From a virus, in the IMG/VR virus record IMGVR_UViG_3300033149_002817, positions 1 to 64,000 of that record: a DNA stretch of 64,000 nucleotides, one strand, 5' to 3'. The notes below the pieces were generated by a model, which did no database searches, was not told the DNA's origin, and was given only the letters and a program-made list of their open reading frames with translations. Of this stretch, positions 575 through 34,292 are shown piece by piece. How positions within the stretch are numbered: position 1 is the first letter of the stretch; each line of letters opens with the position of its first letter. The translations under genes and the position numbers were made by a program.

Positions 575-3500
575 ATGGTCAACCTCGCGCAGTACCTCGC
601 CGGCAGTGTATCGCTCGAAGAGCTTGAGGAGTCGCTGCCCGTCAGCGGGGCCGGCGGCTTGATGCTGCCGAAGCCGATGACGACGCGGCACGAGAGGCTG
701 CAGCTCGCATGGCAGGATTTCAGCACGAAGCTGGAAGCCCTGTGGCTCGACGTGATGGAGACGTCCGAAGAGCTGTACATCGATGCCGCGCAGACCATCG
801 ACGAGCTGCGCAACGTCGGCTTTCAGAACCCGCGGCACGGGGTGCCAATCTTCAAGCGCTTGCAGCAGAAGGTCGCTGCGTACGCGATGAAGCCGAGCGA
901 AGAGCAGAATGCCATCCAGGTGATTGCCGCACGTCTCGGAGCGCTGAACGCTGAGCTTCTCTACATCTGCGACGAGCACGACCCGCAGATGCCGAAGCCT
1001 CCGGAGCTGCCCGCCCGCGACATGAAGACGTGGCAGAAGGATAGCGGCGTGGAGCGCTTCCCCGGCGAGCTGGGGATGTCTGATCCCGGCATCGAGGGGA
1101 TGGAACCGGAGCCCGACGACGAGGATTTGCCTCAGGATCAGCAGGTTATCTCGGCGGAGCCCGGCGAGGAGCCCGAGGGGGAGATGCCGCCCGAAGGCGA
1201 AGAGGTGCCGGGCGAGGAGCCCGACGAAGACGAGGTGCCCTACGATGCCGCCGAAGAGGAACCACAGGATGCGGAGGGAGAGCTTGCAGGAGAGGATGGA
1301 GAGGATCCGCTGGCTCCTGGGGACGAAGAGGAAGGCGCCCCGGTCGAGCCTGGTATGGAGGATCCTGACGGTGGTGAGGTGGCTCCTGAGGATGGAGAAG
1401 AGGAAGCCCCCGACGTCGAACCCGGCGAAGCACCCGACGAGGTTCCCGGAACAGAGCCCGAGCTTGCGCCTGAGCCCGGAACAGAGCCCGAGCCCGGAGT
1501 AGAGCCCGACGCCGAAGCTCCGCCCGGGGCCGAGCCCGGCGAAGAGGAGCCCGAGGCACCTCCCGAGAAGGCGGCACCGGATGGTGAGGAGCCCGAGGCG
1601 CCTCCTGAGAAGCTGAAGCCGGAGGATGGAGCGCCCGAGCCACCGTCGGGCATGGAGCCCGAGGGGATGGAGCCCGAGGGGATGCCGAAGGAGAAGCCCG
1701 AGGTACCGCCGAAGGAGAAGCCCGAGGTACCGCCGAAGGAGAAGGGCGACGAGAAGGGCGAGAAGCCCGACATAGCTCAGGTCGCGGACAAGGAACGGGG
1801 AGACGCGGACGACGCGAAGCAGGACTTCGCCGACGCGGCAGCGAAGACCGACGACGAGGAAGGGGAAGCAGAGGAGGTCGAGGGCGACCCGAAGGCTTCC
1901 CCGGAGAAGAAGGCGGACGAGAAGGACGACGTCGAGCGCGCGAAGGGTGAGGAGGTCGACGCTGCGGCGGAGGTCGAGGGTGAGGACGACGAAGCCGACT
2001 CGGCGGAGCGGTCGCTCGGGCAACAGCCGCGTGACTGGGACACCGACCGCCTGAAGAAAGCCTACGATCAGGTCAAGTCGGACCTCGGGGGCAAGGTGCC
2101 CGCGGACGAGATGCCGAAAACACCTGAGGAGCTGATCCAGCTCATCGCGCCCGACGACGGCGACGCCGGCATCATGCAGCAGGGAGCCGACGCGGACACG
2201 GGGAAGGTTGACCCGCAGCTCGCGCAGTACCTGCAGCGCGAGATCAAGAAGGGCACGCTTGGGAAGGAGCCCGACGAGGATGAGCAGCTCGGGGCTCCGC
2301 CGTCGAAGCCGAAGTCGAAGATGCCCCCGCCTGGGAAAGACATCAAGGCGGCGATGAAGATCAAGGCGAAGCGCAAGCCGGGTCGCCGGATGGAGGGGGA
2401 GCCGAAGCTCGGGGAGACGGTGAAGGCAGCTGACCCCGCGAAGGTGGATCAGGACGAGCTGGCGATGGGCACGAAGGAGGAGATGGAGCACACGACCGAC
2501 GTGAAGGTCGCGGAGCGCATCGCCTTGGAGCACCTCGCTGAAGACCCGAGCTACTACAGCAAGCTCAAGAAGGCCGGACTTGCGGAGTTCTACCGCTCTC
2601 CCGACTACTTCGGGCCGAAGGCGGAGCAGTACCTCGACGAAGTAGCGCTCGACGAGCGGGGCCTGCCCGGGGCCATGAAGGCAAAGAAGGTGCTCAAGCG
2701 TCTGCTCAAAGCCGGATGGGAGATCATTCGACAGACCGGATCGCACAAGATCCTGAAGAAGGCCACGAAGACCATCATCTTCGCGTTTCATTCAGGCGTC
2801 GAGATCGGCCGCCGGATGCTCGCGAAGCTGCAGAAGCAGACCGGCGTGAAGTTCATGGAGAACTACGCGGCGGTTGACGCTCTGCGCTACGCCATCGTCG
2901 AAGAGCAGGGTGACGTGGAGGCGTCTTTCCAGCTGGCAGCGGAGACGATCGCGGAAGCCGTGCGGCGCTACACTGACGCGAGTGATGTTCGTGGGGAGTT
3001 GGGCGTGGTTGCTCCCGGGCGTCCACCGTCCATCAACGTGTTCGCGGAGTGGCGGAGCAACGGCCGCCCGAGCGACAGCTTCGGCTTCACGCGTGTCATC
3101 CCGATCGAGGGGGCGGTGTACTTCGCGAACGCAGACGGCGTGGTCAGCGAGTCGTGGGATATCGACGAACACATCACGAACACGGAACTCGCGAACCGCG
3201 TATATGGCGCTATGAGCGAGGTTTACGACGTCTGCCCGACGCGCGTGACAGAGGATGAGAGGGTCGTACCGGCGCTCTACCGCGTCATGGAGCGAGAGCA
3301 GCGCGGAGAGAGCATCTCCGGCTACGCCTACGGTGGACTCCTTAACAGCCTTCGTTCGTCGCTGAGCATCGCAGAGGGTGTGGCTACCGCGCCTCAGCGC
3401 ATCCACGTGACGATGGCAGGCCCGCGCCGCTACTACTTCGAGTGGACGGTCCCGGCCCCCAAGAAGATCCCCGCTGTTGTGGGGACACCGGACGGCATGC

Positions 3501-4243
3501 TTGCTGAGATGCAGGACGTGCTTGGCGCTGGAAAGCTGGCGCTCAACGAGGACGCGACGGTCACGCTCGGCGGCGCGAGGGTGGGCCTCCTGAAGCATCG
3601 CCCGATGACGCCGGAGACCGTGCGGCAGGTCGCGATGTTCAAGACGCCGACCCGGGCTCAGTTCGCTGCGGGGAAGCTCGGAAGCGACTGGACTCCGGTT
3701 CACGTCTACGTTGACGACGGGTCGGAGGGCTGGGTCGTCGGCGACAAGCGGAAGGACGCGCTGTCGAAGATCGGAGCCCGGCGTATGGGTGTTGAGGAGG
3801 GGGTCATCGGGCTCTCTGCAATAGGTGGTGCCGCGTCTACGGTGTGGTGCTCACCGCCGATCAGCATCTCTCCGTCAGAGGGCTCCGTGCTGATCGGCGA
3901 CTCCGTGCTCGACAGGGACTGCTCCGATAGGGCGTTTGCCGATATCATCTCGACGCTCTCCGAGCAGCAGGACGACACGGCACACGGCTACCTGTTCGAG
4001 GACGGCCCCACCGTCCAGGTGGATCGCAAGACGCGCCTACGTGTGCAGGAGACGGGTGTGGGCGATGTGCTGGTGTCGCCGCTCGACGAGGACGAGGACG
4101 AGAGGATCCGGGAGGCGAAGGCGGCGAAGCAGAAGCTCGACCCGTACGACGTCATTCGTGCAATCGCGAACATGGAGTTCATCCCGCGTGGGCCGTTTGC
4201 GGTCCTGAGGGTGAAGCGTCACGGGACGGGACAAGGGAAGTAG
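575..4243 (+). CDS. Large acidic virion-associated protein with embedded HicA-like domain
   Basis: 1222 residues, function unknown. The ATG at 575 follows AGAAGGAG, and is preferred to an upstream in-frame GTG at 428 that overlaps the kinase gene. Seen in order: a helical N-terminal part (1-160); a Pro/Glu/Gly-rich acidic low-complexity region (about 170-400); a charged region to 600; the motif KLGE (611-614); LDE (692-694), followed at once by a module (about 701-765) resembling HicA/YcfA mRNA interferases, with KRLLKAGW, then GSHKILKK, then a FHSG strand; and a long C-terminal region of unknown fold. HicA is normally a free toxin of about 60 residues. The LxE motifs fit T4-type prohead protease sites. 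Inference: an internal or head-associated protein processed during assembly. Confidence 0.85.
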   Translation: MVNLAQYLAGSVSLEELEESLPVSGAGGLMLPKPMTTRHERLQLAWQDFSTKLEALWLDVMETSEELYIDAAQTIDELRNVGFQNPRHGVPIFKRLQQKVAAYAMKPSEEQNAIQVIAARLGALNAELLYICDEHDPQMPKPPELPARDMKTWQKDSGVERFPGELGMSDPGIEGMEPEPDDEDLPQDQQVISAEPGEEPEGEMPPEGEEVPGEEPDEDEVPYDAAEEEPQDAEGELAGEDGEDPLAPGDEEEGAPVEPGMEDPDGGEVAPEDGEEEAPDVEPGEAPDEVPGTEPELAPEPGTEPEPGVEPDAEAPPGAEPGEEEPEAPPEKAAPDGEEPEAPPEKLKPEDGAPEPPSGMEPEGMEPEGMPKEKPEVPPKEKPEVPPKEKGDEKGEKPDIAQVADKERGDADDAKQDFADAAAKTDDEEGEAEEVEGDPKASPEKKADEKDDVERAKGEEVDAAAEVEGEDDEADSAERSLGQQPRDWDTDRLKKAYDQVKSDLGGKVPADEMPKTPEELIQLIAPDDGDAGIMQQGADADTGKVDPQLAQYLQREIKKGTLGKEPDEDEQLGAPPSKPKSKMPPPGKDIKAAMKIKAKRKPGRRMEGEPKLGETVKAADPAKVDQDELAMGTKEEMEHTTDVKVAERIALEHLAEDPSYYSKLKKAGLAEFYRSPDYFGPKAEQYLDEVALDERGLPGAMKAKKVLKRLLKAGWEIIRQTGSHKILKKATKTIIFAFHSGVEIGRRMLAKLQKQTGVKFMENYAAVDALRYAIVEEQGDVEASFQLAAETIAEAVRRYTDASDVRGELGVVAPGRPPSINVFAEWRSNGRPSDSFGFTRVIPIEGAVYFANADGVVSESWDIDEHITNTELANRVYGAMSEVYDVCPTRVTEDERVVPALYRVMEREQRGESISGYAYGGLLNSLRSSLSIAEGVATAPQRIHVTMAGPRRYYFEWTVPAPKKIPAVVGTPDGMLAEMQDVLGAGKLALNEDATVTLGGARVGLLKHRPMTPETVRQVAMFKTPTRAQFAAGKLGSDWTPVHVYVDDGSEGWVVGDKRKDALSKIGARRMGVEEGVIGLSAIGGAASTVWCSPPISISPSEGSVLIGDSVLDRDCSDRAFADIISTLSEQQDDTAHGYLFEDGPTVQVDRKTRLRVQETGVGDVLVSPLDEDEDERIREAKAAKQKLDPYDVIRAIANMEFIPRGPFAVLRVKRHGTGQGK
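1655..1744 (+). repeat. Short in-frame tandem repeats in the acidic region
   Basis: A 15-base unit (GAGCCCGAGGGGATG) occurs twice, at 1655-1669 and 1670-1684. It is followed by a 24-base unit encoding KEKPEVPP that occurs twice (1684-1707 and 1708-1731) with a partial third copy to 1744. All are multiples of three, so length changes by slippage would keep the frame. Confidence 0.85.
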
Positions 4244-7654: not shown

Positions 7655-10141
7655 ATGCGACCGGAGCATCTCGACGTCATTCTTGAGCGTGTCGGTGCGG
7701 CGATGCAGGGCAACGCTGTAGCCGAAGCGCAGCAGAGCGTCGATGAGGTAGACAGAGGCTTCGAGTCGTTTGAGGAAGGCACGCGGGCGGAGCAGTTTCG
7801 CTGCAAAGCGCTGTTTTCTGGGGGTGGGTCTGGCTCTGGTAAGGGTTTTGTTCTGGACAACACCGTCCGCGGCCTCGGGCTTCGTATCCTCAACTCCGAT
7901 GACGTCCTTGAGGCGCTTGCGGCAAGCCCGGTCACGCGTGAGCGCTTGCAGAAGAAGCGCGACGCGAAGGGTGCAGAGGGCGACATCACCGGGAAAGGCT
8001 ACGGTCGTCGTGGCGCCGTGATCGACCTCAAGACCGAGCTGATGGGCAAGTTCGTCCAGAAGGAGCTGCGCCCCTACTCGAAGCGTCGGTACAAGAACAA
8101 AGCGCATATGACGATGGACCGCCGCAACGGTCTCGTCTTCGACGTGACCGGTGCCAACCTCGGGACCATCCAGAAGTTCTATAAGGAGCTTACTGAGCGG
8201 GGTTACGACTGCGGGATGATCTTCGTCAGTGTGAAGATTCCGACTGCGCAGACGCGTGACCTCAAGCGTAAGCGTTCGCTCGGCCCGGAAGAGGTCGAGA
8301 AAGTTCACATCAAGGCTAACGCCAACGTCTCGAAGCTGGCTCAGCTGTTCGGTGCGGAGAATTTTCGCATCGTGGTGAACGAGAATGTCAGGGGTACGAA
8401 GCGGCCGACGGCGAAGAAGGACCGCTCCCTTCCCGAGGCAATCCGTAGCGGCGCGACGATGATGCGTGCTGTCAAAGGGCGGAAAGCGCAGCAGCAGGCT
8501 ACGGTCAGCTCCGACCAGTGGACCATCAACCAGCAGCTCATACTGCAGAAGTTCAAGGACGCTCGTAGTTGGGCGACGAAGTGGCTCAAGAGGCCCATCC
8601 GGAACCCCGTCGGCAAGGCGTACCTTGCGAGCCTGAAGGAGGCGGTTGCCGCGGACGCGGGGCTCGTCGAGAAGGCGGAGATGTACGTCGTCTACCGCAA
8701 GGACGGCACCGGCTTCATCTACGAGCAGATGTTCTACGACCAGCTGACTGCTCGGGCGTTCGCACGTCGCATCAAGGGCTCCGTCATCATGGACCCGGCG
8801 AAGGTGCCCGACAGGATCGGCAACCTCTCGCAGCTCGGCGGGAGCGTGGTCGAGGGGGCGGGGGTGCTCAACGAGTGGGGGTATCGGCAGCAGCGTCGCA
8901 CGAAGACCCTCAGCCGTCCGGCCGACGAGATCGCGAAGGCTCTCTCGTTTGAGGCCGCTGTCGTGTTGTTCGGGAGCACGCAGTTCAAGTCTCCCAAGTA
9001 CAAGCTCGCGCAGGAAAGCTTTCGTCTACGCATCTCGAAGGCTGAGTGGGAGAAGGGTCGTAAGGAGCTGACGGGTCACGGCATAGCCAACAAGGCGGGG
9101 AACGTCACCTACAAGCTCGCAACTCCGGTGCGCACCGAGTTGGAGAAGATCGTCGGGGCGCGGACGGACTTCCGGCTTGGGATGGCGCTGACGAAGCACT
9201 ACAACCGCTCGAAGGCGTTCATGGGCGACCCGTGGGATAATGCCGAGAAGCGTCGGTTCGACCTGAGGGACGGTCACTGGTACAGCACCGGCGACTACAA
9301 GCCCCTCCCGGAGGCGGCCGACATCGACGAGCGCGGCTACAAGGCCAACCCGAAGGCATACGCGCAGGCGATGGCGAAGGCCGGAGCGAAGCCTTCCCGT
9401 GTTTGGTTGACCGTCGCAAACCTCGTGCAGTCGGCGGCGAAGAAGATGGGGAACGCTGTTCGCAACATGTCAGACGAGAAGGAGCGTGCCGCGTCGCTCG
9501 GACCCCTGAACACGATTCTGGACCTGACCGATGTTTCTATGGCTACTCAGGCATCGCGCTCGCATCGTGCTGAGACGGTCAAGCAGGTAGCTGCAGCGCG
9601 GGACGCAGCGCAGCGTAGTGGTTCACCGCTCTACTCCGCGCTCAACGACCTCTATCGCAAGATCCGCGCGACGACGTACAACGAGTCGGCCGAAGACCTC
9701 GACGAGTTCTTCTGGCGGAAGCGCGACAAGGGCAAGTTCGCGGCGAAGGGGCAGGGTCAGGAGCCCGCGCCACGCAAGAAGGTACGCTCGAACATCGCCA
9801 GCGACGACTACGCGAAGGCGCTTGCTCAGGCGAAGTCCGACCCGCGCTACAAGGACGAGCTGAAGCACAAGCTCGCGAAGGCGGAGAGCGCGAACGACCG
9901 CACCGGCGTCGAGCTGACGGAGCCGGCGGGACTCGTCAAGCCCGGTCAGGAAGGCGAGTGGAAGCGCGCGAAGGCGGCAGCTTCCCAGCAGTACCCGGGC
10001 ATGGAGGCGAAGGACAAGGACCGCTTCTACGCCGTCACGAACACGATCTTCGGATCGATGACCGGGCGGAGGAAAGAGGAGAGCATGACAGAGCGCACTG
10101 CCAACCTCCTCACCGAGCGGATGACCGGCATCCGGGGGTAG
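7655..10141 (+). CDS. Zeta-toxin-like P-loop kinase with C-terminal assembly module
   Basis: 828 residues. Residues 50-240 look like a zeta-toxin/AAA_33-type kinase: Walker A GGGSGSGKG (56-64), ILNSDD (79-83) and a later FDVTGAN. Such kinases phosphorylate UDP-sugars or other small substrates; the substrate here is unknown. The C-terminal part (about 557-700) carries IDE-RGYK followed by PKAYAQAMAKAG and YSALNDLYRK, a module also present in the prohead protease-scaffold at 28674. The N-terminus HLDVILERVG also contains an (I/L)xE motif. Four bases separate it from the next giant gene. Inference: packaged or head-associated kinase processed at I557-D-E559. Confidence 0.8.
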   Translation: MRPEHLDVILERVGAAMQGNAVAEAQQSVDEVDRGFESFEEGTRAEQFRCKALFSGGGSGSGKGFVLDNTVRGLGLRILNSDDVLEALAASPVTRERLQKKRDAKGAEGDITGKGYGRRGAVIDLKTELMGKFVQKELRPYSKRRYKNKAHMTMDRRNGLVFDVTGANLGTIQKFYKELTERGYDCGMIFVSVKIPTAQTRDLKRKRSLGPEEVEKVHIKANANVSKLAQLFGAENFRIVVNENVRGTKRPTAKKDRSLPEAIRSGATMMRAVKGRKAQQQATVSSDQWTINQQLILQKFKDARSWATKWLKRPIRNPVGKAYLASLKEAVAADAGLVEKAEMYVVYRKDGTGFIYEQMFYDQLTARAFARRIKGSVIMDPAKVPDRIGNLSQLGGSVVEGAGVLNEWGYRQQRRTKTLSRPADEIAKALSFEAAVVLFGSTQFKSPKYKLAQESFRLRISKAEWEKGRKELTGHGIANKAGNVTYKLATPVRTELEKIVGARTDFRLGMALTKHYNRSKAFMGDPWDNAEKRRFDLRDGHWYSTGDYKPLPEAADIDERGYKANPKAYAQAMAKAGAKPSRVWLTVANLVQSAAKKMGNAVRNMSDEKERAASLGPLNTILDLTDVSMATQASRSHRAETVKQVAAARDAAQRSGSPLYSALNDLYRKIRATTYNESAEDLDEFFWRKRDKGKFAAKGQGQEPAPRKKVRSNIASDDYAKALAQAKSDPRYKDELKHKLAKAESANDRTGVELTEPAGLVKPGQEGEWKRAKAAASQQYPGMEAKDKDRFYAVTNTIFGSMTGRRKEESMTERTANLLTERMTGIRG

Positions 10142-10145: not shown

Positions 10146-13100
10146 ATGCCCGAGCTGACCGAACGACAGGAAGTTCTCGACGACGCCGCGATCAAGCGGA
10201 TGCGGAAGGACTACCTGATGCTGATGCGGAACATCGACCGCGTCACGTCTCCGCGGGCGCACGCGGTCCTGAAGAAAGGCGCGAAGACCTTCGCTCAGCA
10301 CCTCGTAGAACTCATCGTCGGTGACTGGTTCGACACGGCCGACGCGCCTATCAAGACGATCCTCCTGAAGCACAACGTCCCGGAGCGGGAAGCGAAGGCG
10401 GTGCAGCAGCTTGCTCAGAAAGCGCTGTACATGCTGGAACACGAGCTGACGATGATCCCGGATTGGCAGGATTGGGGGGAGGCGTCGCGCAAGGGGGCGA
10501 AAGCGTCAGACTCAGTCCGATGGCGGAAGCGGGTCGATAAGCACGCTCGTCAGGTCTGGAAGGACTTGGACTACGTCTCCAAGTACGTCAAGCGCGTCAG
10601 CGGGTCCACGCCGGTCGTCGGGAAGGCAGAGACGAGCTTCGACGTCGCGGGCATCCCGGTTCGCGTCACGGGGACGCTGAAGTACCCGGATGCGTTCCGT
10701 ACGGGGATGAAGGACGCGGTTCAGCGGATCAAGAAGGTACTCCCGTGGGCGATGCGGTACCGCCTCCCGGTACAGATCATCGACATGGACATGAGGGCAG
10801 ACGGCACGTACAACCGTGCAACGAAGCTCATCCGTATGTCGCACTGGTTGCACGAACCGCGCCGCGTGTCTCAGGTGTACGTTCACGAGATGGGGCATCA
10901 CCTCTGGCAGCAGCTCGGGCAGGACGCGAAGGACTACTACCGCGCGGCCGGGAACGCGAACGCGAAGAAGCTGAGCGTCCGCAAGCTGCTCGATGAGTGG
11001 CCCGAGGGCGCTCTCGGTCTGCTCGGGTACGCGAGGCAGCTTGAGAACTCTGATCCCATCCTCTCCGTGCAGCTGCAGTCGATCGAGATGGGTTACGCGT
11101 CGCGCTCTGCGTCGGACAAGACAAGCCTATTGACGCTTCTCGATCGTGGTGTAGAGCACATTACGGTCGACGGGCACCCGGTGACGTACTACGCCGCAAA
11201 GAACTCGGAAGAGAACTTCTGCGAGGTACTCGGGGCGCTCATCTCGTTCGGTCCGCGCACCGTTCACCCGCTCGTCAAGGCGCTCATGAAGCACGTACTC
11301 GGCTCCCGCTTGAAGCTCTCGGAGGCGACGATGGACACAACCGCGCCCACGAAGGCTCCGTGGCATTCCTGCACGGATTGCGACTACGGTATTCCCAAGT
11401 ACGTGGGCCGCTACCCCCAACATTGCCCGAACTGCGGATGCAAGCTCGGGGGCCAGTCGGGCTACCCGAGCATGAAGCGGCGCCTCCCGACGCGCACCGC
11501 GGACCCGGGGCCGGGCATTCCCCTTGAGGAGCGCGCAGCCTTCGAGGCGTGCATGCACGACGTAGCGCGTGGGGTGAGCTTCCCCGGCGTCACTTACACG
11601 CTCACGGAGGGCGGCGTTGCGGCGTTCCGCTACGCGCCCGACCACCTCGCGATCACGCCGACGGTCATCCGCGTCTCGCTCGACGAGGTCAGCATCCCGG
11701 CAGTCGAGGCGGAGGTCATCAAGCTCGCCGAGACGGTCGACACGCTGATGGTTGATAGCGCCATCGATGAGGGCACGCTGTCAGAGAGAAGGCAGGCCGT
11801 ACTGTCGACGAAGCACTTCGACAAGATGCGCACCGAGTGGAAGCGTATGTTGAAGCCACTCTTCACGAAGGGGCGCGGTACGCTTGAGACCGAGGCGGCG
11901 GACTCCGTCTACGCGGGAAAGTTCGAGGAGTTCGTGCGGGCGTCGTTCGAGTTTCTGGCGCACGAAGTTCCGGTTCTCCCTTCGTTGATATGGTGGTACG
12001 AAAAAGCCGACAACATCACGGGGCCGGCGAAGGCGATAGCGGATAAGTTCGCGGGCGCTTACCTGTGGTCCGAGACGTTCTACAAGCGCAAGTCTGTTCG
12101 TCCCGCGGAGGACTACAAGAAGTTCTACGGAGGCAAGGCGGAGAAGTTCCTGGAGATGTTCGTGAAGCTCCGCAGGGCTGTCGAACACTCGGGGTTTACG
12201 CTCGACAGCTGTAGGCTTATGGGAAAGGCTTCGACCCGCAACATCGATCTCGACATCAAGTACAACAACGTCTTTCGTGAGCACCTTTGGAAACTGTGGC
12301 AGGAACGCGACCCGAGCAGCTTCGATAAGAACGTGAAGAACTTCTTCGCCGGCCCGCACGACGAATCTGCACGTGAGCCGATGGCGGAGTACGCGAAGAC
12401 GCTACCTCGCGAGCTGACCGACTTGAAGTACCAGGACGTTGAGACGAGGCACGTAGACCTTGAGCACGCGGGGAAAGCGGTTCTCGCGAAGCTCGACAAG
12501 GTTCTCAAGTTCTTGAAGGGTGGCGTTGCGACTGCGAGCTATCCCGAGTACATGATGAAGCAGATCGCTACGCAGAACCTCGGTCGTGAGAAAGTGCGTG
12601 GTGAGAAGCTTGCGGTAACGGCGGACGTCGTGCGCGGGAACGACAACGTCGCCGGCTTCCGTGTCGAGAACGACATAGGGCTTCCGCGTCACGCTTGGGA
12701 GAGCTTTGCGAAGGTAGTAGCTCTCGTAGCACGTGGGTTGAAGCGTAAGGGTCTCGGCTTCCTCATCAAGCGCGTGGTCGTTCACGTCAAACCAAAAACC
12801 ATGCGCACGTTCACCGTCAAGGATACTGGAGAGAAGAGCCTGTATGGTGGCTCCTACAACCTGTCTCCCGGGTACGACATGTTGGATCTCAAGTATGGAA
12901 TGAGAACAGATCCGAGTTCAAAGCAGAAGCTCAGTAAGAGCACGCCGACGGCGAAGGGCAAGGGCGTCGTCGTCATGAACTACGACACCGCCAGCATACC
13001 GTCTGAGCAGGACGTGGCGCGCATCTTCACACACGAGATCGGGCATCACTACTACTTCGCTTTCCTGCCGCCGAAGGCTCGCGCCGCCTACCGGCACTTC

Positions 13101-21707: not shown

Positions 21708-22112
21708 ATGTTCATCGACGTACTTCAGCTGGCGGAACGTCGCGAGGTTTCGGACAAAGAGAAGCGCCAAGGCGCAGCTCTCGCGAAGCGTGCGGCCTAC
21801 GCCGGCTTTGGTGGTGGTGACGAAGAGAGTGACGCCCCCGGTCTGCGTCGTCAGGCGTCGAAGCAGTTTGGCCGCGAGCGCTACGAGTCCGAAGAGTCGC
21901 TCGACGAGAAGGGTCTTCCCAAGGGCAAGTGGTGGGCATCGCAGGGGAAGACCCCCTGGGGCGCGAAGCCTTCGTCCGGTTCATCGAAGGGCGACGCTGC
22001 GAAGACAGCCGCTCAGACCAAAGCGGTGAACAAGGCGATGCGCAAGGGCTTCAAGGAGGCACGCTTCGTCGCTGTCGAGACGCTTGAGGCTCGCGCGAGT
22101 CACAAGAGCTGA
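21708..22112 (+). CDS. Candidate internal protein with N-terminal targeting motif
   Basis: 134 residues, basic and soluble. The N-terminus MFIDVLQLAERRE ends in L-A-E at residues 8-10, like the cleavable capsid-targeting peptides of T4 internal proteins, which are cut after (L/I)-x-E. A second motif, SLDEKGLPKGKWW, is in the middle. The rest is Lys/Ala/Ser-rich, as expected for a DNA-associated internal protein. It shares the FIDV..L.E start with the 24181 gene. The function after cleavage is unknown. The packaging role is inferred. Confidence 0.65.
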   Translation: MFIDVLQLAERREVSDKEKRQGAALAKRAAYAGFGGGDEESDAPGLRRQASKQFGRERYESEESLDEKGLPKGKWWASQGKTPWGAKPSSGSSKGDAAKTAAQTKAVNKAMRKGFKEARFVAVETLEARASHKS

Positions 22113-24188: not shown

Positions 24189-24546
24189 GTTCATCGACGT
24201 CTTCGATCTGATCGAAGCGAAGAAGGGTGGCCTTCATAAGCTCACGGCGAAGGAGCGGAAGGCCGTCAATGCTTCGTTCAGGAAGGGCGGACTCGACGGC
24301 AATACCGTCTTTCGTTCGCCCAACGAGGGCGTCAGTGTAGCCGCGGAGGTTATGGAAAAGCACGGGTTCGAGTTCATGGCGTCCGGTGGTTTCAGGCCGA
24401 AGAACAACGGTCGGACGAATTACGACTTCGATCGCTCGAACAAGGCGGATGCGTTCTCGCCAGCGTACATTGAGAACTCGTCCATCTGGTTCAGCTGGTA
24501 TCAGCATCGCGAAGGCGCTTTCGAGTGCCTTGCATATCTGTCGTAG
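24181..24546 (+). CDS. Candidate internal protein with N-terminal targeting motif
   Basis: 121 residues. GTG 24181 is chosen because GGAGG lies 8 bases before it; the ATG at 24160 has no such site. The N-terminus MGEFIDVFDLIEAKKGG contains L-I-E at 10-12 and parallels the FIDV..LAE start of the 21708 gene, again like a T4 capsid-targeting peptide. The remaining part has a small alpha/beta appearance (EVMEKHGFEFMASGGF). Function unknown; packaging is inferred from the motif. Confidence 0.65.
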   Translation: MGEFIDVFDLIEAKKGGLHKLTAKERKAVNASFRKGGLDGNTVFRSPNEGVSVAAEVMEKHGFEFMASGGFRPKNNGRTNYDFDRSNKADAFSPAYIENSSIWFSWYQHREGAFECLAYLS

Positions 24547-26707: not shown

Positions 26708-27820
26708 ATGGCAACTGTTTCGACTCTCTACGAGGCGGCCACCGGCATCGAGGTCGGCAAGGTCGATGAGGGCGACGGTCTCCGGCAGAAGACGTGGCTC
26801 GACGAGCTGTCTCGCTGGGCGATGGAGATGGCGACCGAGCGCGGTCTCGGCAGCGCCGGAACCGGAATCCTCGCCAACTTCCCCTCCATCGTCGAGGGGG
26901 CGGTCCCGTACATGGGCTCGAAGGCCATCGGCGAGACCTATTCGGCTCCGGCCTTCTTCGGCTGGGAGCTGTACGAGGCGTCGCAGCAGAGCGGTTCGCT
27001 CGGCACCGGCGACGCGGCGATTCTGGAGTGGGGCGACGTCGTGCTCGCGGAGCCGGACCCGACGCATCAGGACTTCTACAACGCCACGACCGATCCCGAC
27101 GACGCGGTCAACCCGCTCGGTGCGACGGCTCCGGCCTTCCTGCAGACCGTCGTCGACGCCTGGAACCTCACCGGTCTCCTGACGCTGACCATCGTGGTCA
27201 ACGGCGCGACGCACGCCATCCCGGTCACGACGGCCAACGCTGCTGCGGTCACTGCGGAGGAGCTGCAGGAGTCGATCCTCGCGGCAGGCGCTCCGGTGAA
27301 CTGCTTCCTCGAAGGCGGCGACACGATCCGCCTCATGGCGATCGGCAACGGCGTCAGCAGGAACATCATGGCGGTCAACGCGAGTGCCGCGACCGTTCTC
27401 TTCACGGGTGCTGGTCAGTCTTCGCAGCCGGGCGTCATGTACTACGGTACCGGCGGCCCCCTCGGGCAGATGGACAACACCAGCAACGTCGTCGGCGCCA
27501 AGCCGCAGCGGCGCATCCTGCCGGGGTCCATCAGCATCGACATCACGATGGGCGGCGAGGTCGTCGTCGTCACGGACAGCACCATCACGACCGGTAACAC
27601 GGGTGTGCTCGCCGGGCAGAACGCGGCCGGCACCGCGACCGTCAACGGCACCATCAACTACGTGACTGGTCTCATCAGCGTCACGACCGTGGGTGATGCG
27701 GCCGACGCTGCGACGAACCTCGTCGCTTCGTGGCGGGCTCTCGTGCCGATCAACCTGCACGAGCCTGTTCGGCGTTCGCCGGCAGGTCGTCACTACGCGC
27801 TGCTGCTCGCGAGCGCGTAG
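26708..27820 (+). CDS. Structural protein with sheath-type and capsid-type beta inserts
   Basis: 370 residues; ribosome site GGAGGAGTGAG. The helical N-terminal 60 residues are followed by LTLTIVVNGATHAIPVTT and a TAEEL..SI helix, a small module also seen in the tail sheath (52606). A later region (GTINYVTGLISVTT) matches the beta insert of the major capsid protein (VNTVNYSTGAFDVTF). Abundant virion protein is likely; capsid decoration or accessory capsid protein is inferred from its place just before the protease and capsid genes. Confidence 0.7.
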   Translation: MATVSTLYEAATGIEVGKVDEGDGLRQKTWLDELSRWAMEMATERGLGSAGTGILANFPSIVEGAVPYMGSKAIGETYSAPAFFGWELYEASQQSGSLGTGDAAILEWGDVVLAEPDPTHQDFYNATTDPDDAVNPLGATAPAFLQTVVDAWNLTGLLTLTIVVNGATHAIPVTTANAAAVTAEELQESILAAGAPVNCFLEGGDTIRLMAIGNGVSRNIMAVNASAATVLFTGAGQSSQPGVMYYGTGGPLGQMDNTSNVVGAKPQRRILPGSISIDITMGGEVVVVTDSTITTGNTGVLAGQNAAGTATVNGTINYVTGLISVTTVGDAADAATNLVASWRALVPINLHEPVRRSPAGRHYALLLASA

Positions 27821-28222: not shown

Positions 28223-28674
28223 TCGGCCGACGCGCGGCACGACCGGCGACTGCGTTCATCGACCCGAAGGCGAAGAGCCAAGGTCGCCGACCGCATCAGA
28301 GGCATGAAGGGGTGTATCTTTTCAAGCGTGCTGCGCACGACACGACCATCGACATGTACGAGCCTCCGACGGCGGACGGCTTTGTCGAGAGCTACGTGCT
28401 GGAGCACTTCGACGCGGAGCTGCTTCTGGCGATCGTGCTCAAGCTGACAGAGCAAGAGATCATCGACTTGATGGACCGCTTGTACAACTTCCGCGCGGTC
28501 ACGTTCAACACGCGGACACGGGCTATCGTCGTGCGACGTGACACGTGGGCGCGGCCCCACAACGAGGACTTGCTCGCTCTGCCTCCGGTTGACGTGTCGG
28601 AGCGTCTCGATCGGTCGCTTACCGGACTTGTGAGTCACATGCAGGCGCTCGCGCCACAGAAGGAGACAGCGTGA
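28219..28674 (+). CDS. Small protein upstream of prohead protease (151 aa)
   Basis: ATGA overlap with the previous gene. Basic N-terminus, then a helical acidic stretch (SYVLEHFDAELLLAIVLKL, EQEIIDLMDRLY). No enzyme motif. In T4 the gene before the protease is a small core protein; a similar role is possible here but rests only on position. Confidence 0.6.
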   Translation: MIGRRAARPATAFIDPKAKSQGRRPHQRHEGVYLFKRAAHDTTIDMYEPPTADGFVESYVLEHFDAELLLAIVLKLTEQEIIDLMDRLYNFRAVTFNTRTRAIVVRRDTWARPHNEDLLALPPVDVSERLDRSLTGLVSHMQALAPQKETA

Positions 28675-31298
28675 TGCAGGTGCTCGACGGTCGCAACCTC
28701 TACGAGAACGGGACGAGCCTCGGGCTGCTTCAGCTCGAAGAGGGTCAGCGCTCCAACAAGATGATCATCATCGAGCGCTTCTCGGGCGAGTGGTGCGATC
28801 TCAAGCAGGTCGAGCTGACGGAGATGGACCGGACGAACGCGTCGCAGCTCTTCGAGGCCGGCGGAAACAAGGCCCCTCGCATCCTCATGGCGATGGAGGG
28901 GCGTTTTCAGGCGTCGGACATGAAGAACGCGAACGGGCGGATCTACCCCGGGACCATCTGGGAGAAGATCATTCCGAACGCCGGCACGTCGCCGGTACTC
29001 GGCCGCATCGCTCGCGGGGAGATGCTCGGCGAGGTCGATCACCCCGGCGACGGGCAGACGCTGCTCAAGCGCGTCGGGTGCATGACGACGAACATCCTGC
29101 GCGAAGGCAGCGACGTCCGCGGGCGGATGATCGTGTTCGACACCGCGGTCGGCCGGGATGTGAAGGCCATCGTTGAGGGCGGCGGACGTGTTGGCGTCAG
29201 CTCGCGGGGACAGGGGAGCGTCGTCCGGCTCGAAGGTACGGACGTCGTGCAGGACGATTACCAGCTCGAAACGTGGGATGTCGTCCACAATCCGAGCACG
29301 CCGGGAGCCTACCCGGACATCACGATACAGGAGAGCGCGGCGCCGTCGCAGCCGCAACAGGAGGAGCGGATGGGCATGCTGGCGGACCTCCGGGAGCGGT
29401 TCGAGAGGCTGAAGAAGCATATCGAGGGGCCGGATGCTGACCTCACGGAGAGCGTCTTCACGATCCTCAACGACGAAGCGAAGGGGATGGCGACGGAGCT
29501 GACGGAGGGCAAGTTCGGGGGCTCGCCCGCGGAGGTCGCCGCCATCGCTGCCGACGTGCAGTATTTCCTCAACCGCATCGGGCAGCTGCGCGCGAACCCG
29601 ATCAAGGGCATCCCGCTCGGCGAGGAGGACGACCCGCTGCCGACGGCCGCCGCGACGGGCGGAACGGTGCAGCTCGCGGAGAGAGACTACAAGGGCGACC
29701 CGAAGGCGTACGCGAAGGCGATGGGAAAGGCGCAGAAGAGGGCGGGCATCAAGACGCTGAGCACCGACGTGAGCACCGGGCCATTCTCGGACGCTCGGTC
29801 GAACGCTATTTGGGACGCGCGGATGGAACTGGAGGATGTGCTTGGTCTATGGCACCCGATCACGAAGAAACTCAGGGTGATCTACGACGCCTTGAAGATG
29901 CAAGGCGGTTCGTCCTCGAAGAAGGAAAAGGCGCTGAAGGATTTGGCGCGACTCCGTGATAGTGCACAGCGTGCTGATGGCGACGAGGGTAAGGTTTACT
30001 CTGCTCTCCGTGATGCCTACCGCCGGGCTCGCGCGTCGATGTACAACGAGGCTCGCATGGGGGCTCACGCGGGGCAGAACGAGCCGGGGCGGGACTGGGA
30101 TGACGCAGGTGACGTCGAGGACGTCCGCGCCCGCTTCAAGGGCAAGCCGAAGCGTACGCCCGGTCGCCACAAGGCGGACAAGGCGCTCGTGAAGGGCGCA
30201 GCGAAGCAGCTTGCTCGGTACAACGAGAACGACGACGACGATGACGATACGGAAGAGGAGTGCAACGAGACTTTCCAGCGTGCAACGACCGCGGGTGAGA
30301 CGGTCGAGGTTCTGGAGAACGTCGCCGGCCTGCGCGAGAAGGCGCTGACCGTGCCGATGACCCGCTTCGTTCATGAGGCGCGCAAGGCGTACCGGGACGC
30401 GGCGCAGGTCGATGGCATGATCCATCGGCACGAGCTGGACGGCATCTCTTCCTTCGTGCGGGACACCTACGAAGCGGTCGAGAAGGACGAGATCACGGAG
30501 ACGATGGAGACGCCCGCCGGACGGCGGCGCTTGGAGATCATCGTTCCCAACGCGGGCAAGCTCGACGAGAACACGAAGCAGCTGGTGGCCCCCATCGGCG
30601 GACTCACGCAGACGGCGCCGGGCCGCTACCACACCTCGGTGCCCATCGACAAGGTCAGCGACGTGCTGGAGAGCCTTGCGCGTGGGGGCATGTCTCTCGT
30701 GTACACCGAGTCGACCGAGGCTTTCGACGACGCGGCGGAGCGCTTTCAGCCGCTGCTCGACAGGCAGATGAGCCTCACGCAGGCAGCGCTCACCGAAGCA
30801 GCGACGGGTAAGGCGTGGGTCACGGAGATGTCCGCGATCATCGCCAACGTGAAGCAGGCGATGCAGATGCTCACGGAGAAGGCTCGCGAGCGCGGTGCGG
30901 CGCTGCAGGAGACGGAGAAGAAGGTCAGCGCAGCTACGGCTCTCATCGAAGCGTTCGCTCGTGAGTTCGGCGTTGAGCGGGTTCGCGGTGCGGTGCAGGC
31001 GGTCGCTCAGCTTCATCCGAGCGCCAACGCGCTGCCGGAGAAGCTCTCGGAGGCCCGTAGCGTCGAGGACTGTGTCAGGCTGACACGTGGGGAGGTGTAC
31101 CTGGAGAACCTGCCCATCGTCGAGCGGAACGAGACGCGCATCACGGAAGCGGTGCAGACGTCTCAGCGCGCGAGACAGAAGCGCATCGAGGAGAGCGCGA
31201 AGAAGCCCGGAGCGGGCAGCTTCAAGCGCAGCATCGTCGAGACGACCGAGCAGGTTGTCGGAGCGATGGACAAGAAGTACGGCCGGAAGGATCGGTAA
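28674..31298 (+). CDS. Prohead protease (T4 gp21-like) fused to scaffold core
   Basis: 874 residues; start ATG 28674 or GTG 28671 after AAGGAG. Residues 1-235 are a gp21-type serine protease: NANGRIYP, then GEVDHP with the catalytic His (123), then GRVGVSSRGQGS with the catalytic Ser (176 or 177), then WDVVHNPSTPGAYP. Residues 236-874 form a scaffold: charged, helical, with a run of Asp (DDDDDD) and a long C-terminal coiled coil. VQLAE (332-336) is followed by RDYKGDPKAYAKAM, the same module as in the 7655 kinase, and may be a self-cleavage site. In T4 the protease and scaffold are separate genes (21, 22). The capsid gene follows. Confidence 0.9.
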   Translation: MQVLDGRNLYENGTSLGLLQLEEGQRSNKMIIIERFSGEWCDLKQVELTEMDRTNASQLFEAGGNKAPRILMAMEGRFQASDMKNANGRIYPGTIWEKIIPNAGTSPVLGRIARGEMLGEVDHPGDGQTLLKRVGCMTTNILREGSDVRGRMIVFDTAVGRDVKAIVEGGGRVGVSSRGQGSVVRLEGTDVVQDDYQLETWDVVHNPSTPGAYPDITIQESAAPSQPQQEERMGMLADLRERFERLKKHIEGPDADLTESVFTILNDEAKGMATELTEGKFGGSPAEVAAIAADVQYFLNRIGQLRANPIKGIPLGEEDDPLPTAAATGGTVQLAERDYKGDPKAYAKAMGKAQKRAGIKTLSTDVSTGPFSDARSNAIWDARMELEDVLGLWHPITKKLRVIYDALKMQGGSSSKKEKALKDLARLRDSAQRADGDEGKVYSALRDAYRRARASMYNEARMGAHAGQNEPGRDWDDAGDVEDVRARFKGKPKRTPGRHKADKALVKGAAKQLARYNENDDDDDDTEEECNETFQRATTAGETVEVLENVAGLREKALTVPMTRFVHEARKAYRDAAQVDGMIHRHELDGISSFVRDTYEAVEKDEITETMETPAGRRRLEIIVPNAGKLDENTKQLVAPIGGLTQTAPGRYHTSVPIDKVSDVLESLARGGMSLVYTESTEAFDDAAERFQPLLDRQMSLTQAALTEAATGKAWVTEMSAIIANVKQAMQMLTEKARERGAALQETEKKVSAATALIEAFAREFGVERVRGAVQAVAQLHPSANALPEKLSEARSVEDCVRLTRGEVYLENLPIVERNETRITEAVQTSQRARQKRIEESAKKPGAGSFKRSIVETTEQVVGAMDKKYGRKDR

Positions 31299-31343
31299 CG
31301 CAGGCGCGTAAGCGCTCAACTTGAGATAGATAGGAGTTGCAAC

Positions 31344-32735
31344 ATGGGTGACAACCCGTACGCCACGATGGAGGACGTCGTTGCGAAGGGGGAGATGCTT
31401 GCCGAGAGCAAGTGGGCTCCGCTCGTCAAGGGGCTCGAAGGGCTCGACAAGGCGCACACGGCGGTGCTGCTGGAGAACACCGCGAGGTGGGTCAACAGCA
31501 TCGACGAGACCACGCGCGCTGTCAACGTGGGCAACTTCGACCGCTTCGCCTTCCCGCTCGTCCGCGCCGTCGTCCCGAGTCTCGTCTCGCAGGATCTCGT
31601 CAGCGTCCAGCCGATGGACGGACCTGTCGGGCTCATCTTCTACTTCGACCTGATCTACGGGTCCAACAAGGGCCGCATCCGCGCCGGCACCCCCGTCTTC
31701 AGCTCGCTGACGGGACACCCCGGTGACGATTTCTACAGCTCGCCGCGGATCGAGGAGGAGGCCATTGCCACGGGCAACGGCGCCACCGCGAACTACACCG
31801 GCACGCTCGACTACACCCCGTGTGTCCCCGGAACGCTGCAGATCACTGACGGCGCGCTCAGTGCGCAGGACGACGGTCAGGGCAACCTGATCGGCGACAT
31901 CGTCGCTGGCGGCGTGAACACCGTCAACTACAGCACGGGCGCCTTCGATGTCACCTTCTCGGCGAACATCGCGGCCAACAACCCGATCGTCGCGAACTAC
32001 GAGTACGACAACGAAGCGAACAGCCAGGTTCCCGAGATCGACTTCCAGCTGACGTCGGCCCCGGTCGTCGCCAAGATTTTCAAGCTCCGCACCCGCTACA
32101 GCCTGGAGGCTGCTCAGAACCTCCGCGCGCTGCACGGGCTCTCCGCGGAGACCGAGCTGGTCGTCGCGCTCGCGCAGGATCTCCGCTTCGAGATCGACCG
32201 TACCATCATCAAGGAAGTCAACCAGTTCGCGCAGGCCACCTCGGTCAGCTGGCCCCTCACCCCGTCGGCGGGCGTGTCGTGGACGGAGCACAAGCTCAGC
32301 TTCGTCGACAAGCTCATCGAGGGCTCGAACAACGTGTTCGAGCTGACGCGGCGCGGCAACCCGAACTGGTGCGTGGTCGGGCTCAAGGTCTCCAACGTCA
32401 TCGAGAGCCTCCCCGGCTTCAAGCCCTCGGGCGCGATGTCGAACCCGGTCGGCGTCATCTACGCGGGTGACCTCAACGGCCGGTGGAGGATCTACAAGGA
32501 TCCGTACAACATCGACGGCACCGCGACGCAGCGCAACTTCCTCATCGGCTACAAGGGCTCGACGTTCCTGGAGGCCGGCTTCGTGTACGCGCCCTACATC
32601 CCGTTCTACACGACGCCGACCGTCATCCTCGACGACTTCCTCGCGAGGAAGGGCATGGCGACGCAGTGGGCGCGCCGGAAGGTCAACGGGCGCTTCTACT
32701 GCCGCGGCACCGTCTCCGGCAACTTCGCCCCGTAG
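31344..32735 (+). CDS. Major capsid protein (T4 gp23-like)
   Basis: 463 residues; ribosome site ATAGGAG. HK97-fold capsid protein of the gp23 family: N-terminal helix with MLAE-SKW (L19-E21), the likely prohead-protease cut; VGNFDRFAFPLVRAVVPSL; VSVQPMDGPVGLIFYFDLIY, a strong family signature; a beta insert (about 150-225) with VNTVNYSTGAFDVTF; and C-terminal WRIYKDPY and FVYAPYIPFYTTPT. The propeptide of about 21 residues is shorter than in T4 (65). A terminator follows, and the protease-scaffold is directly upstream. No gp24-type second capsid gene was found. Confidence 0.95.
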   Translation: MGDNPYATMEDVVAKGEMLAESKWAPLVKGLEGLDKAHTAVLLENTARWVNSIDETTRAVNVGNFDRFAFPLVRAVVPSLVSQDLVSVQPMDGPVGLIFYFDLIYGSNKGRIRAGTPVFSSLTGHPGDDFYSSPRIEEEAIATGNGATANYTGTLDYTPCVPGTLQITDGALSAQDDGQGNLIGDIVAGGVNTVNYSTGAFDVTFSANIAANNPIVANYEYDNEANSQVPEIDFQLTSAPVVAKIFKLRTRYSLEAAQNLRALHGLSAETELVVALAQDLRFEIDRTIIKEVNQFAQATSVSWPLTPSAGVSWTEHKLSFVDKLIEGSNNVFELTRRGNPNWCVVGLKVSNVIESLPGFKPSGAMSNPVGVIYAGDLNGRWRIYKDPYNIDGTATQRNFLIGYKGSTFLEAGFVYAPYIPFYTTPTVILDDFLARKGMATQWARRKVNGRFYCRGTVSGNFAP

Positions 32736-32782
32736 TTCGGGGATCGTAGCCCGACGAGAGGTTGGGCACGCTATGCCGATTG

Positions 32783-32821: not shown

Positions 32822-32837
32822 CAGTAGGGGACAGACA

Positions 32838-33992
32838 ATGGCGCGTATACGCCGCGCAGACATTGAAGCGCTGCTTAGCAAACCGTCGCCGAAGGCAGCG
32901 GTTTGGGGCTTTCAAGCGAACGCACTTGGGCAAGGGCTCGACTCAGCGCTCGCCGGAAACCATAGCAAACGTCAGAGATGGGTGCGGGGTCTTCTGAAGA
33001 CTTCATCTGCGGACACCTTCACGACCCGGCAGCAGTCCGTATGGTACCGCGGCATACCGCGTAAAACCCACAGGGTAGTGATTATCTCCGAGCTGAACGG
33101 CGCAGACGTCTACCACTACTTTCCGAAGGGCGGAGAGCACGGACCGATTGCTAAGCTCTGGAAGTCCTACGGCGAGGGCACAACGCCTCCGCTTAAGAAG
33201 GGGAAGAAGCACGCGAGGACGAACTCACGTCCGACGATGGAAGCGACAATGAGCGAGCGGCGTAGCGCGAAGGAGCTTCTCGGCGCGACGCACGCTATGA
33301 CGGGCATTTCGTGGTACCACAAGGAAACCGACAAGAAGCTTGCGCATCTATCCTACGCGACGCTCAAGCTCACGGTCATGCCACGCGTGTCCAAGGCGTT
33401 CGAGAAACTCATCCGCGCCGACGCGACGCAGTACAAGAAGGGTCAGGTTCACACGAACCCGAGCGGGCAGTCGACCACGTGGGGCCACGAGCTGAAGGAG
33501 GCGACACCCGATCGGCAGGTTCAACTCATAGAGACGCTCGTCTCTCACCTCGACGAAGCACGGATGAGTAAGTCCGAGTTCGCGAAGGAGTGCCGGCGTC
33601 GTCGGGACCACGGGCTCGTGCTGTCGGGCAACACGTACCCCATCAAGGAAAAGATCAAGGCGCAGGGTGGTATCTGGGATTCTCGTCTGCGGGCGTGGTT
33701 GGTTCCGGACGTCACCGTGATGAACAAGCTCGACAGCTTGATGTCTGGCTCGTCTCGCAGCTCGTCCCGTACTTCTTCGTGGGATGCCAGCGACGCCGCT
33801 GCTACCAGTGTCGCCGCTGGCAGCGGTGCATCTCGCAGCACGATAAAAACTCGTGCTGGAGGTTGCGCAGAATGCGGGGCAAGCCTTCAAGGTCGCGGTC
33901 GCAGCACGTTACGTCACGACTCGTCCGGCCTCCCGGGCTACGTGTGCAGGCGCTGCTCGTCAACTTCAAGCTACGAACTGAGCTTTGCATAG
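32838..33992 (+). CDS. Unknown protein with VQLIE motif and C-terminal zinc ribbon
   Basis: 384 residues; ribosome site AGGGGAC. Seen: a basic N-terminal 220 residues; RQVQLIETLV with L-I-E at 230-232; GNTYPIKEKIKAQGGIWDSR and AWLVP (about 265-295), a short motif (…K..ikalGg.Wd...kaW.vP) that occurs in many phage and plasmid proteins; a Ser/Ala linker; and a zinc ribbon (CAECG...CRRC) at the end. The VQLIE..V.H.DEAR segment recurs in the next gene. Inference: head-internal protein cut after LIE. No function can be given. Confidence 0.7.
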   Translation: MARIRRADIEALLSKPSPKAAVWGFQANALGQGLDSALAGNHSKRQRWVRGLLKTSSADTFTTRQQSVWYRGIPRKTHRVVIISELNGADVYHYFPKGGEHGPIAKLWKSYGEGTTPPLKKGKKHARTNSRPTMEATMSERRSAKELLGATHAMTGISWYHKETDKKLAHLSYATLKLTVMPRVSKAFEKLIRADATQYKKGQVHTNPSGQSTTWGHELKEATPDRQVQLIETLVSHLDEARMSKSEFAKECRRRRDHGLVLSGNTYPIKEKIKAQGGIWDSRLRAWLVPDVTVMNKLDSLMSGSSRSSSRTSSWDASDAAATSVAAGSGASRSTIKTRAGGCAECGASLQGRGRSTLRHDSSGLPGYVCRRCSSTSSYELSFA

Positions 33993-34001
33993 GAGCTTGT
34001 G

Positions 34002-34292
34002 ATGAGCGTCGCCAAAGACTACGAAATGTACCTTCAGGGTAAGGATGGCGACCGTCCGATGAAGGAGTCAACATCCGTGGAGAGCGCGCCCGACCGGCAG
34101 GTTCAGCTCGCAGAAGCACTCGTCGAGCATTTCACGCATTTCGACGAGGCGCGCAAGCCGAAGCCGAAGAAGAAGAAGCCGTTCGCGAAGTGCATGGAGT
34201 GCGGTCGCGGCTTTGCGTCTGTGCGGGCGGCGGAGCGGGCGATGTCTGTAGGTTGTCCGGGCTGCGGTGGGTCTGACATCGACATGGCGTAG
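34002..34292 (+). CDS. Small zinc-ribbon protein with VQLAE motif (96 aa)
   Basis: ATG 34002 after TAGGAG; an adjacent GTG at 33999 is possible. DRQVQLAEALVEHF (L36-E38) parallels DRQVQLIETLVSHL of the preceding gene. Then come a Lys-rich linker (KPKPKKKKPFAK) and a zinc ribbon (CMECG...CPGCGG). If cut after LAE, a basic zinc-ribbon peptide of about 58 residues would be released, a plausible DNA-binding internal protein. The role is inferred. Confidence 0.65.
   Translation: MSVAKDYEMYLQGKDGDRPMKESTSVESAPDRQVQLAEALVEHFTHFDEARKPKPKKKKPFAKCMECGRGFASVRAAERAMSVGCPGCGGSDIDMA

What the first reader, a model, noticed from the sequence alone, without database searches (positions are those of the whole stretch)
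575..34292. Many proteins carry V(K/Q)L-x-E motifs fitting the phage's own prohead protease
Seen: KLGE and LDE in the 575 protein (612-614, 692-694); IDE in the 7655 kinase (557-559); KLAE, KLAE, KLGE in the 2164-aa protein (529, 1053, 1575); RLAE in the 20437 protein (243); LAE at 8-10 in 21708; LIE at 10-12 in 24181; VQLAE in the protease-scaffold; MLAE in the capsid protein (19-21); VQLIE in 32838 (232); VQLAE in 34002 (38). Known: T4 gp21 cuts after (L/I)-x-E. The sites fall at N-termini or at domain boundaries. Inference: a large set of internal proteins is packaged with the scaffold and cut into separate enzymes during maturation. LxE is frequent by chance, so the shared context matters more than single sites.
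Basis: partly seen in the sequence, partly recalled or inferred. Interest (0 to 1): 0.88.

Follow-up and report, generated by a model that had tools for sequence, protein, structure and literature searches.

The report
Protease-trimmed protein cargo in phage heads
This uncultured T4-like phage marks most of its head-interior proteins, including long chains of joined enzymes and a toxin-like domain, with the short cut signal of its own head-maturation protease, so it probably packs them with its DNA, trims them inside the head and injects them into the host cell.

Summary
In the gene block around the protease and capsid genes L/I-x-E occurs 149 times against 92 expected; in the tail genes 75 against 76. 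T4 shows the same contrast (66 against 42; 71 against 70.5). "V(K/Q)L-x-E" is too narrow: the motif is T4's L/I-x-E. The strongest evidence is N-terminal: many of these proteins begin with a short T4-like capsid-targeting peptide ending in L/I-x-E, and relatives carry batteries of them. The kinase of the 7655 protein begins MKTFxELQE|G in marine T4-like phages. Packaging with N-terminal trimming is well supported. Cutting of the long proteins into separate enzymes is plausible but unproven: sites lie just before DUF5661, HicA and NUDIX and between metallopeptidase units, and V-x-L-x-E after the metallopeptidase is kept in another phage, but the statistics are moderate and partly post hoc and no virion data exist. 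The capsid maturation site is probably IDE55, not MLAE21.

The parts
575..4243 (+). 1222-aa multidomain protein: N-terminal LEE16/LEE19, acidic low-complexity region, DUF5661, HicA, unknown C-terminal part
2408..2416 (+). LGE614, candidate cut site just before DUF5661
2438..2572 (+). DUF5661 domain; stand-alone versions elsewhere often start MKYxDFFINE|
2648..2656 (+). LDE694, candidate cut site 9 residues before HicA
2684..2848 (+). HicA-type toxin domain (E 1.4e-11) with GSH motif; no HicB match in the record
7655..10141 (+). 828-aa protein: N-terminal MRPEHLDVILE|, zeta-toxin-like kinase, unknown part, shared module
7679..7687 (+). ILE11, candidate N-terminal propeptide end
7781..8419 (+). 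P-loop kinase region; homologues in marine T4-like phages begin MKTFxELQE|GVYDPNIFKA
9323..9331 (+). IDE559, candidate cut site at the start of the shared module
9332..9688 (+). Module shared with the protease-scaffold protein (34% identity, E 1e-12)
10146..16640 (+). 2164-aa protein: three HExxH metallopeptidase units, zinc ribbon, ParB-like domain, NUDIX
10155..10163 (+). LTE6, candidate N-terminal propeptide end (compare T4 Alt MELITE|)
11316..11324 (+).
11724..11732 (+). VIKLAE529, start of metallopeptidase unit 2
13296..13304 (+). GVKLAE1053, between metallopeptidase units 2 and 3; V-x-L-x-E kept in another phage
14862..14870 (+). SVKLGE1575, between unit 3 and the ParB-like domain
15705..15713 (+).
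15729..16100 (+). NUDIX domain (E 3e-15)
20437..21699 (+). 420-aa protein with MEDLRE| N-terminus, RLAE243 and six other LxE
21708..22112 (+). 134-aa protein with MFIDVLQLAE| N-terminus (capsid-targeting-like)
24181..24546 (+). 121-aa protein with MGEFIDVFDLIE|AKK N-terminus
26708..27820 (+).
28671..31298 (+). Prohead protease (S77) fused to scaffold-like region; 28 LxE against 9.8 expected
28857..29327 (+). Peptidase_S77 domain (E 8e-17)
29673..29681 (+). VQLAE337, junction of protease part and shared module
29682..30332 (+). 217-aa stretch with no LxE inside the LxE-rich protein; holds the shared module
31344..32735 (+). Major capsid protein, Gp23 family (E 1.3e-57)
31398..31406 (+). MLAE21, conserved LxE in close relatives; role unclear
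31500..31508 (+). SIDE55|TT, most likely capsid maturation site by conservation
32838..33992 (+). 384-aa protein with VQLIE232 before a weak DUF5710 match
34002..34292 (+). 96-aa protein with VQLAE38; shares APDRQVQLxE segment with 32838
34302..34646 (+).

Best explanation
This is a T4-type head-maturation system with an enlarged internal cargo. The fused prohead protease-scaffold protein builds the prohead core. A set of cargo proteins joins the core through short N-terminal capsid-targeting peptides. On activation the protease cuts after L/I-x-E: it removes the targeting peptides, trims the capsid protein at IDE55, shreds the scaffold, and cuts the long cargo proteins (575, 7655, 10146 and the module in 28671) at several domain junctions. 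The released domains (zeta-like kinase, HicA-type toxin, NUDIX, three zinc metallopeptidase-like units, ParB-like domain) stay in the head and enter the host with the DNA. Shown by sequence: the protease and capsid families, motif excess in the head block, N-terminal propeptide pattern, homologues with such propeptides, sites near domain starts. Inferred: packaging, actual cleavage, retention of the pieces, injection and enzyme activity.
For: S77 protease and Gp23 capsid. L/I-x-E 149 against 92 in the head block, 75 against 76 in the tail. T4 calibration gives the same contrast, and 10 of 11 T4 head proteins tested against 2 of 19 tail proteins have an N-terminal LxE. N-terminal LxE in head blocks: G007 16/24 against 3/22 tail genes (P 0.0003), G002 8/13 against 4/26 (P 0.005), this phage 14/33 against 8/34 (P 0.08). 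Kinase family in marine T4-like phages starts MKTFxELQE|G, with E at P1 in 79/79 and L/I at P3 in 72/79. DUF5661 alone starts MKYxDFFINE| in several phages. The G007 ParB-like protein starts MNAKELIRRFLFE|. V-x-L-x-E after the metallopeptidase unit is kept in G001, which also has S77. The metallopeptidase-1 homologue of LR745208, a record in which no S77, Gp23 or phrog_207 match was found, lacks LxE at both matching ends. The same module follows an L/I-x-E in two otherwise unrelated proteins. Domain starts follow sites closely.
Against: No virion proteomics. The 2164-aa protein has no overall excess. In the head block beyond the first 25 residues, LxE (128) exceeds the reversed motif (104) only modestly, and the scaffold supplies much of that. 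T4 Alt keeps several internal LxE, so a motif inside a fold need not be cut. At the kinase position aligned with the marine LQE|G, this phage has FEE|G. In L033 the 24181 homologue keeps E|AKK but not LxE. The stand-alone zinc ribbon of relatives has VME, not LxE. N-terminal excess in this phage alone is not significant (P 0.08). Blocks and boundaries were set after inspection.
Confidence: 0.6

Rival explanations
1. The long proteins are packaged 'polyvalent' proteins that only lose a short N-terminal propeptide and otherwise stay full length; internal L/I-x-E are chance or structural.
For: N4 virion RNA polymerase and several plasmid polyvalent proteins are transferred unprocessed (PMC5512222). 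13 of 14 SPN3US cuts are N-terminal propeptide removals (PMC10052503). The 2164-aa protein has 18 LxE against 15 expected. T4 Alt keeps internal LxE.
Against: Sites fall near domain starts, V-x-L-x-E after the metallopeptidase is kept across phages, five bodies of the 2164-aa protein hold no LxE where 8.4 are expected in sum (boundaries post hoc).
Confidence: 0.28
2. The motif excess reflects only scaffold proteolysis and amphipathic-helix composition; the multidomain proteins are not head proteins.
For: The largest single excess is the protease-scaffold protein; coiled-coil proteins are rich in L and E.
Against: Local shuffles keep composition; the reversed motif is far less frequent in the scaffold (8 against 28); the tail block shows no excess; N-terminal propeptides occur on non-scaffold proteins in relatives.
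Confidence: 0.08
3. The long proteins are processed, but by their own metallopeptidase units, as suggested for phage P1 DdrB, not by the prohead protease.
For: Three HExxH units lie in the 2164-aa protein; auto-processing was proposed for the metallopeptidase of P1 DdrB (PMC5512222).
Against: Does not explain why the same L/I-x-E motif marks scaffold, capsid and small proteins; proteins without HExxH also carry it.
Confidence: 0.06

Closest known systems
Phage T4 prohead protease gp21, capsid-targeting sequences and internal proteins (IPI-III, Alt)
   Same: S77 protease, Gp23 capsid, L/I-x-E motif, short N-terminal propeptides, heavily cut scaffold (PMC9026906)
   Different: Protease and scaffold-like region are one protein; cargo includes proteins of 828-2164 aa with several domains and candidate internal sites. 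T4 cargo proteins are single enzymes or small proteins trimmed at their ends.
phiKZ / SPN3US prohead proteases and ejection proteins
   Same: Head proteins trimmed after x-E before ejection (PMC10052503, PMC5694885)
   Different: Motif is A-x-E in SPN3US and S-x-E in phiKZ; cuts remove N-terminal propeptides; no release of several enzymes from one chain was found in the passages read.
Polyvalent proteins of phages and conjugative elements (Iyer et al. 2017, PMC5512222)
   Same: Long multidomain proteins with metallopeptidase, ParB-like and other effector domains, predicted to be packaged
   Different: No prohead-protease sites between domains were described in the passages read; HicA is not mentioned in that paper.
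Phage P1 Dar proteins (DarA, DarB, DdrB)
   Same: Internal head proteins, an N-terminal packaging signal in DarB, DarA trimmed by protease Pro (PMC9024508, PMC12810830)
   Different: A different phage head system; no series of L/I-x-E sites between domains was described in the passages read.

Membership tests
T4-type prohead protease (Peptidase_S77) | Significant S77 domain match | tested here: met
   E 8.2e-17, residues 63-219 of the 28671 protein; PHROG head maturation protease E 4e-37
T4-type prohead protease (Peptidase_S77) | Catalytic His and Ser motifs | tested here: inconclusive
   GEVDHP and GVSSRG seen in sequence; not mapped residue by residue to T4 gp21
T4-type prohead protease (Peptidase_S77) | Cuts after L/I-x-E | not testable with these tools
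   Motif excess in the head block is consistent; no biochemistry
T4-like capsid | Gp23 major capsid protein with conserved LxE upstream of the shell domain | tested here: met
   Gp23 E 1.3e-57; S-I/L-x-E|TT conserved in nearest relatives
T4 capsid-targeting sequence | Short N-terminal propeptide ending in L/I-x-E | tested here: met
   MFIDVLQLAE|, MGEFIDVFDLIE|, MRPEHLDVILE|, MPELTE| and others; head-tail contrast in this phage alone P 0.08
T4 capsid-targeting sequence | Directs the protein into the prohead | not testable with these tools
   Needs a fusion-packaging assay
Polyvalent proteins | Several effector-type domains in one phage protein | tested here: met
   DUF5661 + HicA; three HExxH + ParB-like + NUDIX
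Polyvalent proteins | Packaged and delivered with DNA | not testable with these tools
   Only gene context and propeptides support it
HicAB toxin-antitoxin system | HicB antitoxin partner | tested here: not met
   No HicB (PF05534, PF15919) match in the 95.6-kb record, which may be a fragment

The most novel reading that the evidence does not exclude
A tailed phage makes polyproteins for its head interior: chains of distinct enzymes, including an orphan HicA toxin domain, enter the prohead through one targeting peptide and are cut by the prohead protease into separate enzymes that are all retained and injected.
Probability: 0.45. Interest if true: 0.82.

Novelty: new variant of a known kind. 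Interest (0 to 1): 0.64.

Why it matters
If true, the head-maturation protease is also a cargo-processing enzyme, and a short motif plus gene position lets one read a phage's injected protein payload from sequence. It also gives a testable list of early-acting proteins: a zeta-like kinase family found in hundreds of marine T4-like stretches with a T4-type targeting peptide, DUF5661, and an orphan HicA. Processing of one chain into several retained enzymes inside a bacteriophage head was not found in the literature searched here.

Tried and rejected
AlphaFold2 on residues 596-1006 of the 575 protein and 1503-2002 of the 2164-aa protein, single sequence: mean pLDDT 36 and 34, unusable for finding linkers. 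PDB sequence search: only NUDIX relatives. Search for the shared module elsewhere: only this phage. HicA homologues in annotated phages: none at E 0.05. Close relatives by single-protein search: only a contig carrying the same sequence. Portal_T4 search in this record: no match, but the control rang nowhere, so uninformative. Idea that MLAE21 is the capsid maturation site: less likely than IDE55. Idea that every LxE is a site: rejected, since DUF5661 has a conserved internal LxE and T4 Alt keeps internal LxE.
Full report
WHAT IS THERE. The window is the first 64 kb of a 95,584-base IMG/VR virus record. It encodes a Gp23-family major capsid protein at 31344-32735 and, just before it, an 875-aa protein whose N-terminal part is a T4-type prohead protease (Peptidase_S77, E 8e-17; PHROG head maturation protease). 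In Bacillus phage SP-15, Listeria phage LIS04 and Streptococcus phage GXN1 a single ORF before the capsid gene likewise holds the protease followed by a long tail rich in charged residues, so a protease-scaffold fusion is the likely reading. Upstream lie three long proteins: 1222 aa with DUF5661 and HicA; 828 aa with a zeta-toxin-like kinase; 2164 aa with three HExxH units, a ParB-like region and NUDIX.

THE OBSERVATION. All listed motifs are present at the stated residues. Against local shuffles, L/I-x-E is in excess in genes before 35.5 kb (149 against 92.3, z 6.5) and not in the tail genes (75 against 76.2). The excess comes mostly from the protease-scaffold protein (28 against 9.8), 26708 (9 against 2.5), 7655 (12 against 5.9) and 575 (18 against 12.0). 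The reversed motif is much less frequent in the scaffold (8). The narrow form [VI][KQ]L.E is 6 against 0.41 in the listed proteins, but these include a tandem duplication and a shared segment, so the count overstates the independent evidence. Outside head and tail a weaker excess remains (64 against 45.6), partly from one short gene at 94408 of the record (9 against 2.9). Gene calls are my own codon-based calls, partly corrected by hand.

CALIBRATION ON T4. T4 gp21 cuts after L/I-x-E (PMC9026906). With the same method, a set of 11 T4 head proteins (ten cleaved or core proteins plus the portal) gives 66 against 42.3 (z 4.1), 19 tail proteins give 71 against 70.5, and gp22 gives 16 against 5.8. 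An L/I-x-E ending at residues 6-25 occurs in 10 of the 11 head proteins and 2 of the 19 tail proteins. So the signature in this phage is what a T4-type protease leaves. T4 Alt also contains several internal L/I-x-E, so internal motifs alone prove nothing.

N-TERMINAL PROPEPTIDES. T4 internal proteins enter the prohead through a capsid-targeting sequence; that of IPIII is its first ten residues, MKTYQEFIAE (PMC9026906; sequence). Here MFIDVLQLAE|, MGEFIDVFDLIE|, MRPEHLDVILE|, MPELTE|, MEDLRE|, MATVSTLYE|, MQVLDGRNLYE| and MDRQSRLASYLRE| look alike. In this phage alone the head-tail contrast is 14/33 against 8/34 (P 0.08). In two relatives with the same protease and capsid families it is strong: G007 16/24 against 3/22 (P 0.0003), with MSRRTRRIIEDYLFE|, MGREAKKLIDAYLAE|, MPGSVRRIIEGGLSE| and MSKNENAKSMIERYIAE|; G002 8/13 against 4/26 (P 0.005). 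The head blocks of the relatives were delimited after looking at the genes.

DOMAINS THAT TRAVEL WITH A PROPEPTIDE. Of 79 N-termini read, all have E at P1 and 72 have L or I at P3: MKTFxELQE|GVYDPNIFKA. In this phage the aligned position reads FEE|G, with a further ILE| at residue 11. DUF5661 occurs in 519 matched stretches; small or N-terminal copies often follow MKYxDFFINE| or similar, but many copies have no L/I-x-E before them. A stand-alone ParB-like relative in G007 starts MNAKELIRRFLFE|. In G001, one ORF holds two copies of the peptide, MGHFDERAGLVE| and, inside, MGQFDKLAGLTE|, which shows how a propeptide can become an internal site.

INTERNAL SITES. In the 2164-aa protein, units 2 and 3 are a tandem duplication (50% identity), each closed by VKL[AG]E. 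G001, which also has S77, has VDLRE at the same place after its metallopeptidase. The homologue of unit 1 in LR745208 is a stand-alone protein without L/I-x-E at either matching end, and it stops about 30 residues after the position of KLSE393; no S77, Gp23 or phrog_207 match was found in that record, though two of those searches rang in no control genome. LLE1856 lies 5 residues before NUDIX, LDE694 9 before HicA, LGE614 7 before DUF5661, and the module shared by 7655 and 28671 follows IDE559 and VQLAE337. Circular-shift tests over seven domain starts in two phages give P 0.001 (upstream distance) and 0.03 (absolute distance). Site clustering gives P about 0.03 for the 2164-aa protein and the scaffold and 0.001 or less for 575; for 575 this is dominated by the acidic region, which has no sites. 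This is moderate, partly post hoc evidence.

COUNTER-EVIDENCE. The 24181 homologue in L033 keeps E|AKK but not L/I-x-E. The stand-alone zinc ribbon of relatives has VME in its N-terminal part, not L/I-x-E. LAE656 in DUF5661 is a conserved internal motif, not a likely site. Structure predictions failed.

MECHANISM. Most likely the proteins join the scaffold core through N-terminal peptides, the protease trims them, and at least some long proteins are cut at domain junctions before injection. I put packaging with N-terminal trimming at about 0.8 and internal cutting into retained pieces at about 0.45; the combined best explanation is scored 0.6 because its core would stand if only some of the internal cuts occur.

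COMPARISON AND NOVELTY. It works like T4 gp21 with its internal proteins, and family membership of protease and capsid is met by sequence. The domain content resembles polyvalent proteins (PMC5512222). In the papers read, prohead proteases remove propeptides or shred scaffold (PMC9026906, PMC10052503); cutting of one chain into several retained enzymes was not found. Hence: new variant of a known kind.

Noticed in passing
L154:5992-6660, L155:5722-6384, L159-L238: A zeta-like P-loop kinase family in marine T4-like phages (Melnitz, HTVC008M and many contigs) carries a T4-type capsid-targeting N-terminus MKTFxELQE| and is annotated only as hypothetical in the two isolates.
   Followed up: partly
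G007:C1 79651-90937 (L128, L129): A battery of small, mostly unrelated proteins with similar N-terminal peptides ending in L/I-x-E, upstream of the protease and capsid genes.
   Followed up: partly
L121, G001:C1 84937-85470 minus strand: One ORF with two copies of a targeting-like peptide, the second internal with its own Met.
   Followed up: no
window 2684-2848: Orphan HicA toxin domain inside a long phage protein; no HicB match in the record.
   Followed up: partly
L002:8561-13678: DNA polymerase ORF with matches to HNH and LAGLIDADG endonucleases, probably inteins or similar insertions.
   Followed up: no
L121, G001:C1 83076-83909 minus strand: Kinase homologue that starts with intein-like sequence just before the P-loop.
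   Followed up: no
window 47223-50330: Four tandem related genes, two of them 79% identical, in the tail region.
   Followed up: no
window 26708-27820: 370-aa head-block protein with 9 LxE against 2.5 expected and a C-terminal stretch similar to part of 63927.
   Followed up: partly
L002:14408-14881 (94408-94881 of the record): 157-aa protein outside the head block with 9 LxE against 2.9 expected.
   Followed up: no
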